Origin: Phycisphaerales bacterium
Lineage (GTDB): Bacteria; Planctomycetota; Phycisphaerae; Phycisphaerales; UBA1924
Direction of reading: 5' to 3'
Length of the DNA stretch: 64,000 nt
Assembly: GCA_029260265.1 (NCBI GenBank)
Contig: JAJDDO010000019.1
Location: 124,001-188,000 of the forward strand
In this document: positions 12,756 through 12,859 of the stretch, piece by piece
Numbering within the stretch: position 1 is the first letter of the stretch
Layout: every line of letters begins with the position of its first letter
Made by a program: the position numbers and the translations under genes
The notes under the pieces: model-generated
Database searches by the model: none
Told to the model about the DNA's origin: nothing
What the model saw: the letters and a program-made list of their open reading frames with translations, nothing else

Positions 12756-12859
12756 CTTGAAGAAAACGCCTTTGGCATAATGCTAAAGGCGTTTTTTGAT
12801 GGAGTGACTGGGTTGATGATTTGTGGGTTGACCCGCTCTGACCCGTTTCTTGACCCGCT
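12717..12859 (+). repeat. tRNA-tail unit A (the intact-tRNA copy)
   Basis: Reference copy of the unit: tRNA-Ala positions 35-73 plus CTT (12717-12758), terminator (12763-12797), a ~30-nt link starting GATGGAGTGACTGG, and three 9-mers TGACCCGCT (12829), TGACCCGTT (12839) and TGACCCGCT (12851). The 10- and 12-nt spacing places all three on about the same face of the helix. Interpreted as the left attachment end of an integrated element. Confidence 0.85.
12763..12797 (+). terminator. Intrinsic terminator of tRNA-Ala
   Basis: AAAACGCCTTTGGCA / TGCTAAAGGCGTTTT forms a 15-bp stem (one G:U) with a 3-nt loop, followed by TTT. Versions of this terminator with different loops accompany the displaced tRNA tails downstream, so it belongs to the duplicated unit. 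Confidence 0.9.

What the first reader, a model, noticed from the sequence alone, without database searches (positions are those of the whole stretch)
12829..12859. Triple TGACCCGCT-type repeat with fixed 10/12-nt spacing
In all units the three 9-mers start at 0, +10 and +22, even when the sequence itself has decayed (for example TGACCAACC, TGGCCCGTA, TGCCACGGA in unit J; the middle copy is lost at 29427 yet the outer two stay 22 apart). About one helical turn each suggests one protein bound on one face, as at integrase arm sites. A function in transcription is also possible because it always follows the terminator.
Basis: partly seen in the sequence, partly recalled or inferred. Interest (0 to 1): 0.68.

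Follow-up and report, generated by a model that had tools for sequence, protein, structure and literature searches.

The report
Integrase arm-binding sites beside tRNA tails
The triple repeat is most likely the docking site that a DNA-integrating enzyme uses to insert mobile islands behind tRNA genes; this is an ordinary part in kind, here seen in a tandem pile-up of islands in an uncultured Phycisphaerales bacterium, with the same layout but a different word in relatives that carry a different integrase.

Summary
Nine units in the window carry TGACCCGCT-type 9-mers at 0/+10/+22, all on the + strand (shuffles: none). The full site is therefore pair (12) – exactly 91 bp – tRNA anticodon loop/tail – terminator – triple (10/12). 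This is the layout of a lambda-type attP: P arm, core, P' arm.

Relatives support this. Empty tRNA-Ala loci keep tRNA and terminator but lack the triple. A 29-kb island at tRNA-Val in another genome is bounded by the same sites. Islands with other integrases, at tRNA-Tyr, -Arg and -Lys, carry different 9-mers with 10–12-bp spacing about 60–74 nt behind the tRNA; the Lys one repeats 10/12 exactly. The likely binder is the integrase at 21170–22444(–): its homologues sit beside tRNA genes, and its AlphaFold model matches full-length lambda Int, arm-binding domain included. The second recombinase (28048–28923) lacks that domain and is shared with an island that has different arms.

A transcriptional role is not supported. 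Binding is not shown. Verdict: new member of a known kind, in a tandem (additive) island.

The parts
12683..12756 (+). intact tRNA-Ala(GGC), the integration target (attB 5' part)
   Evidence: ARAGORN and Rfam
12761..12797 (+). terminator hairpin of the tRNA, native to the host locus and copied in the elements
   Evidence: fold -23.1 kcal/mol, z -8.5; present without the triple in empty loci
12829..12859 (+). P' arm, three 9-mers at 0/+10/+22 (the finding)
15033..15175 (+). unit 2: tRNA-Ala tail from the anticodon loop, terminator, P' triple at 15145
16450..16480 (+). unit 3: decayed P' triple (tail and terminator decayed)
17852..17882 (+). unit 4: P' triple with half a terminator, no tail
18372..18498 (+). 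unit 5: Ala-type tail, terminator, P' triple at 18468
21170..22444 (-). tyrosine integrase with N-terminal arm-binding-like domain (likely start 22339, 389 aa); proposed binder of the 9-mers
   Evidence: Pfam PF00589 and PF13102; AF2 pLDDT 83 with N-terminal strands and helix; top PDB match full-length lambda Int; homologues beside tRNA genes
22413..22736 (-). excisionase-like HTH protein
   Evidence: TIGR01764 'excise' 30.2 bits, cut-off 28.8
28048..28923 (+). second recombinase, XerC/D-like, no arm-binding domain
   Evidence: PF02899 + PF00589, XerC-like; 82-86% orthologues in islands with other arms
29208..29228 (+). P arm: direct pair of 9-mers 12 bp apart
29231..29256 (+). GAGTCC / GAGTCC / CAGTCC phased at 10 bp; candidate excisionase sites (inference)
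   Evidence: mostly conserved in 11 aligned P arms from 4 genomes
29311..29447 (+). unit 6: tRNA-Val-type tail, terminator, P' sites at 29417 and 29439 (middle lost)
32985..33005 (+). P arm: direct pair of 9-mers 12 bp apart
33008..33033 (+). GAGTCC-type block phased at 10 bp; candidate excisionase sites (inference)
33084..33233 (+). unit 7: tRNA-Ala tail, terminator, P' triple at 33203
35623..35770 (+). unit 8: Ala tail, terminator, P' triple at 35740

Best explanation
The triple is the right-hand (P') set of arm-type binding sites of a lambda-type tyrosine integrase that inserts elements into tRNA genes at the anticodon loop. The complete attP is: P arm with two direct 9-mers 12 bp apart, three GAGTCC-like repeats at 10 bp (probably excisionase sites), the tRNA anticodon loop and 3' half, the tRNA's terminator, then the P' arm with three direct 9-mers at 0/+10/+22. 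The N-terminal domain of the integrase (21170-22444, minus strand) would bind the 9-mers on both arms while its catalytic part holds the tRNA core, so bending and phasing of the arms builds the recombination complex. Each insertion leaves an intact tRNA with terminator on one side and a tail on the other, and successive insertions, later deletions and probably homologous recombination gave the tandem row of nine units seen here. Shown from sequence: the sites, their fixed spacings, empty versus filled loci, the element at tRNA-Val, and the change of 9-mer with integrase. Inferred: binding by this integrase, the exact crossover point, the excisionase role of GAGTCC, and past or present mobility.
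For: Same 9-mer on both sides of the core, with P2 to anticodon loop exactly 91 bp in all 7 complete cases, for Ala and Val cores alike; tRNA end to first P' site 70-73 nt (Ala) or 63-64 nt (Val), i.e. about one helical turn less. Empty tRNA-Ala loci in G018, G002, G013, G007, G014, G010, G016 and G004 have tRNA plus terminator but no triple; the window's right flank (51.6 kb) lies 5-9 kb from the tRNA in G018 and G013. G001 C210 holds a 29-kb island between an intact tRNA-Val with P' sites and a P pair plus Val tail, with homologues of both integrases and the HTH inside. Close homologues of the 424-aa integrase occur in 3 of 163 family genomes, all 3 among the 9 with the triple (hypergeometric 1.2e-4, worked out by hand, not corrected for kinship). 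Distant homologues sit beside tRNA genes in 9 of 10 loci. Change of word with integrase: GTRGCCAAA at tRNA-Tyr (12/12 on both arms; 0 of 200 shuffles), ATACCGGAT at tRNA-Lys (10/12, 74 nt behind the tRNA; 0 of 1000 shuffles), CATCCGTTT at tRNA-Arg (12, 73 nt behind the tRNA; a pair 12 apart also at the far end of that 22-kb island). AF2 model (pLDDT 83) best matches full-length lambda Int over 375 columns versus 299 for the fragment without the arm domain. Phage Pixie has a published attP with a pair left and three right, all direct, and CrimD a terminator between core and P3 (PMC3203893).
Against: No binding or recombination data. G012, G019, G009, G077 and G021 have the sites, but no close homologue of the 424-aa integrase was found there, so the link rests on three genomes plus the controls. 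Most window units lack a P arm (2 of 8 internal junctions have one). E5 (18468-29417) starts with an Ala-type tail and ends with a Val-type tail, so its ends are not a simple attL/attR pair. The integrase has Gly in place of catalytic Arg I (alignment). The Arg-island two-arm statistic is weaker (best shared word on both arms 4 versus null maximum 3).
Confidence: 0.85

Rival explanations
1. The 9-mers are sites of the excisionase-like HTH (BldC/RdfS-like proteins bind direct repeats one turn apart) rather than of the integrase.
For: HTH 22413-22736 matches the excisionase model and weakly BldC; BldC binds 9-bp direct repeats within 22 bp (PMC11963761).
Against: The 9-mer is on both arms, as integrase arm sites are, while a separate 10-bp phased repeat (GAGTCC x3) occurs only in the P arm.
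Confidence: 0.08
2. The second, XerC/D-like recombinase (28048-28923) is the one that uses these sites.
For: Orthologues at 82-86% in G001, G006 and G009; in G001 and the window they lie inside the arm-flanked stretch.
Against: It has no arm-binding domain. In G006 the same module (82-87%) sits in a tRNA-Tyr island that has a different integrase and different arms.
Confidence: 0.04
3. The triple acts in transcription, e.g. as an operator or a promoter/terminator accessory behind the tRNA.
For: P' copies follow the tRNA terminator, and several cassette genes start about 40-150 bp further on.
Against: Terminators without triples in empty loci; pairs upstream of tails without a terminator; no RNA fold.
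Confidence: 0.02
4. The row of units grew mainly by homologous duplication of one att region with its S74 gene, and the sites are relics without present function. (This concerns the copy number and present activity; it can be true together with the best explanation.)
For: S74 genes in E1 and E8 share a 300-nt stretch at 78% and both end just before a core; E1, E7 and E8 share 5' ends; several units are decayed.
Against: Other cassettes carry unrelated genes; repeats 1 and 3 are far better conserved than linker or flank. It explains the copy number, not what the sites are.
Confidence: 0.3

Closest known systems
attP of mycobacteriophages Pixie and CrimD (PMC3203893)
   Same: Pixie: pair of arm sites left of the core and three right, all direct, at a tRNA target; CrimD: stem-loop terminator between core and P3
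   Different: Different arm words and hosts; Pixie has a sixth, inverted site; here the terminator is the host tRNA's own and the arm-to-core distance is constant across two tRNA targets
Lambda integrase / attP
   Same: Protein fold including the N-terminal domain; arm sites on both sides of the core; excisionase-like gene nearby
   Different: About 14% identity; different target and arm sequence; Arg I replaced by Gly and the first His by Tyr
ICEMlSymR7A attP (PMC11963761)
   Same: Five P/arm-type motifs around the core, with an RDF of the winged-HTH kind
   Different: Different motif (TGKTGGTATC) and element; need for the arm sites tested there, not here
Dehalococcoides ssrA islands (PMC3146451)
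   Same: Tandem row of islands behind one RNA gene, separated by repeats of its 3' end; many members lack an integration module and may be cis-mobilizable
   Different: Serine recombinase, tmRNA target; no arm-type repeats reported in the passages read
Additive flexible genomic islands (Alteromonas PMC4119200; Methylophilaceae PMC10872708)
   Same: Gene cassettes added at a tRNA, with repeats of the tRNA 3' end
   Different: No arm sites described in the passages read
Tycheposons
   Same: tRNA-targeted cargo elements with a tyrosine recombinase (as described in PMC10872708)
   Different: Characteristic genes not tested here; not filed as a member

Membership tests
Arm-binding-domain (lambda-type) tyrosine integrase with attP arm sites | Tyrosine recombinase with core-binding and catalytic domains | tested here: met
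   PF00589 and PF13102 above cut-off; K242, R321, H342 and Y351 present, Arg I is Gly
Arm-binding-domain (lambda-type) tyrosine integrase with attP arm sites | N-terminal domain of three beta strands and one helix (PMC8138268) | tested here: met
   AF2 model: strands 8-9, 14-19, 22-28, helix 34-54, block pLDDT about 85; match over full-length lambda Int. No Pfam arm-domain hit
Arm-binding-domain (lambda-type) tyrosine integrase with attP arm sites | Repeated arm sites on both sides of the core | tested here: met
   Pair 12 apart plus triple 10/12
Arm-binding-domain (lambda-type) tyrosine integrase with attP arm sites | Integrase binds the arm sites | not testable with these tools
   Gel shift or DAP-seq needed
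Arm-binding-domain (lambda-type) tyrosine integrase with attP arm sites | Site-specific insertion at a tRNA with regenerated tRNA and displaced tail | tested here: met
   G001 tRNA-Val island and empty tRNA-Ala loci
Tandem accretion array / CIME-like elements | Several elements in a row sharing att repeats, some without integrase | tested here: met
   Nine units; recombinase genes only between 18468 and 29417 among the ORFs scanned here
Tandem accretion array / CIME-like elements | Integrase-less members mobilised with or by a neighbour | not testable with these tools
   Needs excision PCR or long reads
Integron | IntI-type integrase | tested here: not met
   Integron integrase model: no hit at E<=0.1 for the 389-aa integrase, 12.4 bits for its G001 homologue and 76.8 bits for the second recombinase, cut-off 265
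Integron | attC sites folding as single-strand hairpins | tested here: not met
   The triple does not fold (RNA parameters only, z +1.15); the unit is a tRNA tail plus terminator, not attC
Tycheposon | tRNA target plus tyrosine recombinase plus the family's characteristic genes | not tested
   Only the first two are seen here

The most novel reading that the evidence does not exclude
A cassette system built from tRNA attachment sites: the integrase of the island mobilises, in trans, single-gene cassettes that carry only a core and a P' arm, and the same arm set serves two tRNA targets (Ala and Val) by changing the core and shifting the arm by one helical turn. It would work like an integron with an unrelated recombinase and site.
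Probability: 0.12. Interest if true: 0.72.

Novelty: new member of a known kind. Interest (0 to 1): 0.42.

Why it matters
It gives a sequence-only handle on integrase arm sites in a poorly studied phylum: look about 60-75 nt behind a tRNA's 3' end, past the terminator, for 9-mers repeated at 10-12 bp, and for the same word before the displaced tail. Within this integrase family the word changes with the integrase while the layout largely stays, so pairs of integrase N-domain and arm word could be collected to study how arm specificity evolves. The Ala/Val pair with a 9-10-bp shift is a natural test of helical phasing.

Tried and rejected
Phage origin in public viral contigs: no match for either pattern and no close integrase relative. 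A first AF2 model from three sequences was too poor to use (pLDDT 46). Sequence search of the PDB with the three-row profile gave only a weak Xer match (E 0.017) and chance hits. Integron membership was tested and not met. Rfam found only the tRNA. PADLOC on E5 genes gave a methyltransferase hit and weak matches to mad8/DolB and mad1. Two distant integrases beside tRNA-Arg(CCT) (L133, L134) lie outside this scheme: the tRNA is on the opposite strand and no 10/12 repeats were seen.

Full report
What was checked. The window lies at G000:C11:124001-188000 of a 2.93-Mb, 41-contig assembly. Named near relatives are MAGs: G001 corresponds to Phycisphaerales bacterium NORP244 and G015 to Planctomycetota Dive100_bin1.59, judged by matching contig lengths. 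The 9-mer triple at 12829-12859 is real and recurs nine times in the window with the outer copies always 22 apart; 100 shuffles gave no match. Repeats 1 and 3 are conserved (1.7-1.8 bits per column), the middle one less (1.2), and sequence beyond +5 is close to random (0.16 bits).

A second set of sites. A scan for single 9-mers showed pairs at 29208/29220 and 32985/32997, spacing 12, same strand. They belong to a block of about 100 bp, found 11 times in 4 genomes (G000, G001, G006, G012), which in nearly all cases ends at a tRNA tail: 9-mer, 3 nt, 9-mer, then GAGTCC-GAGTCC-CAGTCC at 10-bp steps. From the second 9-mer to the anticodon loop the distance is 91 bp in 7 of 7 complete cases, whether the tail is Ala or Val. 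From the tRNA end to the triple it is 70-73 nt (Ala) or 63-64 nt (Val). Pair, core and triple thus form one site.

Empty and filled loci. In eight genomes of the genus the tRNA-Ala(GGC) is followed by its terminator but not by the triple. A gene just left of the tRNA is shared across the genus, and in G018 and G013 genes found at window 51.6 kb lie 5-9 kb from the tRNA instead of 39 kb. The terminator is therefore host sequence and the triple came with the elements. In G001 an intact tRNA-Val(CAC) is followed by the Val terminator and P' sites; 29 kb further on lie the P pair, a Val tail and a triple. Between them are homologues of both window recombinases and of the excisionase-like HTH, plus genes resembling a type III modification methylase, an SNF2-type helicase and an OLD-like nuclease. 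This is the cleanest single element.

Which protein. The 424-aa frame (likely 389 aa) at 21170-22444 has core-binding and catalytic domains. Three-sequence AF2 was poor; with 14 homologues the model reached pLDDT 83 and pTM 0.67, with N-terminal strands and a helix. Its best PDB match is full-length lambda Int (375 columns) rather than the fragment lacking the arm domain (299 columns); the global rmsd is large, so this supports domain content, not detail. Close homologues occur in 3 of 163 family genomes, all with the triple. Nine of ten distant homologues lie beside a tRNA gene. The 291-aa recombinase is a simple Xer-like protein.

Controls. In G006 a 20-kb island at tRNA-Tyr carries the RuvB-like/HTH/291-aa module (82-87% identical to the window) but another integrase, and its arms read GTGGCCAAA/GTATCCAAT/GTAGCCAAA (12/12) and GTAGCCAAA/GTAGCCAAA/ATGGCCAAA (12/12) (0 of 200 shuffles). 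In G134 the tRNA-Lys is followed, 74 nt on, by ATACCGGAT, ATACCGGAT, GTACCGGAT at 0/10/22 (0 of 1000 shuffles). In G185 and G003 the tRNA-Arg is followed, 73 nt on, by CATCCGTTT twice, 12 apart; in G003 a pair 12 apart recurs by the second Arg tail 22 kb away. Homologues at tRNA-Asp (L132, L135) and at a tRNA-Arg of G036 (L136) fit less well, and L131 shows only a weak pair. So the word follows the tRNA-proximal integrase and the layout is largely kept.

The array. Only two of the eight internal junctions in the window keep a P arm. Several cassettes are one or two genes: S74/collagen-like proteins, a propeller protein, an EthD protein, a kinase with an FHA protein, a serine hydrolase. Two S74 genes stop just before a core (15030/15033, 38912/38914). 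Whether such units move by themselves, in trans, or are relics and duplicates cannot be told from sequence. E5 starts Ala-type and ends Val-type, so the array has been rearranged.

Comparison with the known. The layout matches published attP sites: Pixie has a pair left and three right, all direct, and CrimD a terminator between core and P3 (PMC3203893). ICEMlSymR7A has five arm motifs. Tandem islands behind one RNA gene are known from Dehalococcoides and as additive islands in Alteromonas and Methylophilaceae. This is therefore a new member of a known kind; the fixed offset behind the terminator and the Ala/Val phase shift are its most instructive details.

Limits. The genomes used are drafts, some only 55-85% complete, and missing integrases may be assembly gaps. 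The profile used to score units was trained on them. The hypergeometric value ignores kinship. The site where strands cross, the binder of each repeat and any activity are inferences.

Noticed in passing
window 21170-22444 (-): Catalytic Arg I of the integrase aligns with Gly and the first His of HxxR is Tyr; relatives have R, T or G at the Arg I place. Similar departures are reported for the IntCTnDOT and IntDes groups (PMC8138268).
   Followed up: partly
window 26410-28923: RuvB-like ATPase, 166-aa protein and Xer-like recombinase form a module found in islands at different tRNAs (G001 Val, G006 Tyr, and G009) at 56-87% identity.
   Followed up: partly
window 15030/15033 and 38912/38914: Two S74 (chaperone of endosialidase) genes stop a few bases before an att core, as genes do in integron cassettes; E1 and E8 also share a 78% identical 3' stretch.
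   Followed up: partly
L129 and L135 (G110), integrase C-termini: These tRNA-associated integrases carry a C-terminal AP2-like extension (TGFRNVSYHARKDRYYARVMV...), named from the look of the sequence only.
   Followed up: no
L111 about 9400-9480, G001 C210 about 13350-13430, window about 29090-29150: Short hairpin-like repeats near att sites (TTTCTACGAGAATACTCG..., and GAGTGGTACAGAATATGGGGGCAGGTCA) shared between genomes.
   Followed up: no
G000:C17:246072 (-): A lone decayed triple with recognisable linker but no tRNA tail, outside the island.
   Followed up: no
G110:C3:56034, 61969, 94129: Three tRNA-Asp tails in one stretch with scattered ATACCGGAT words: probably another tandem array.
   Followed up: no
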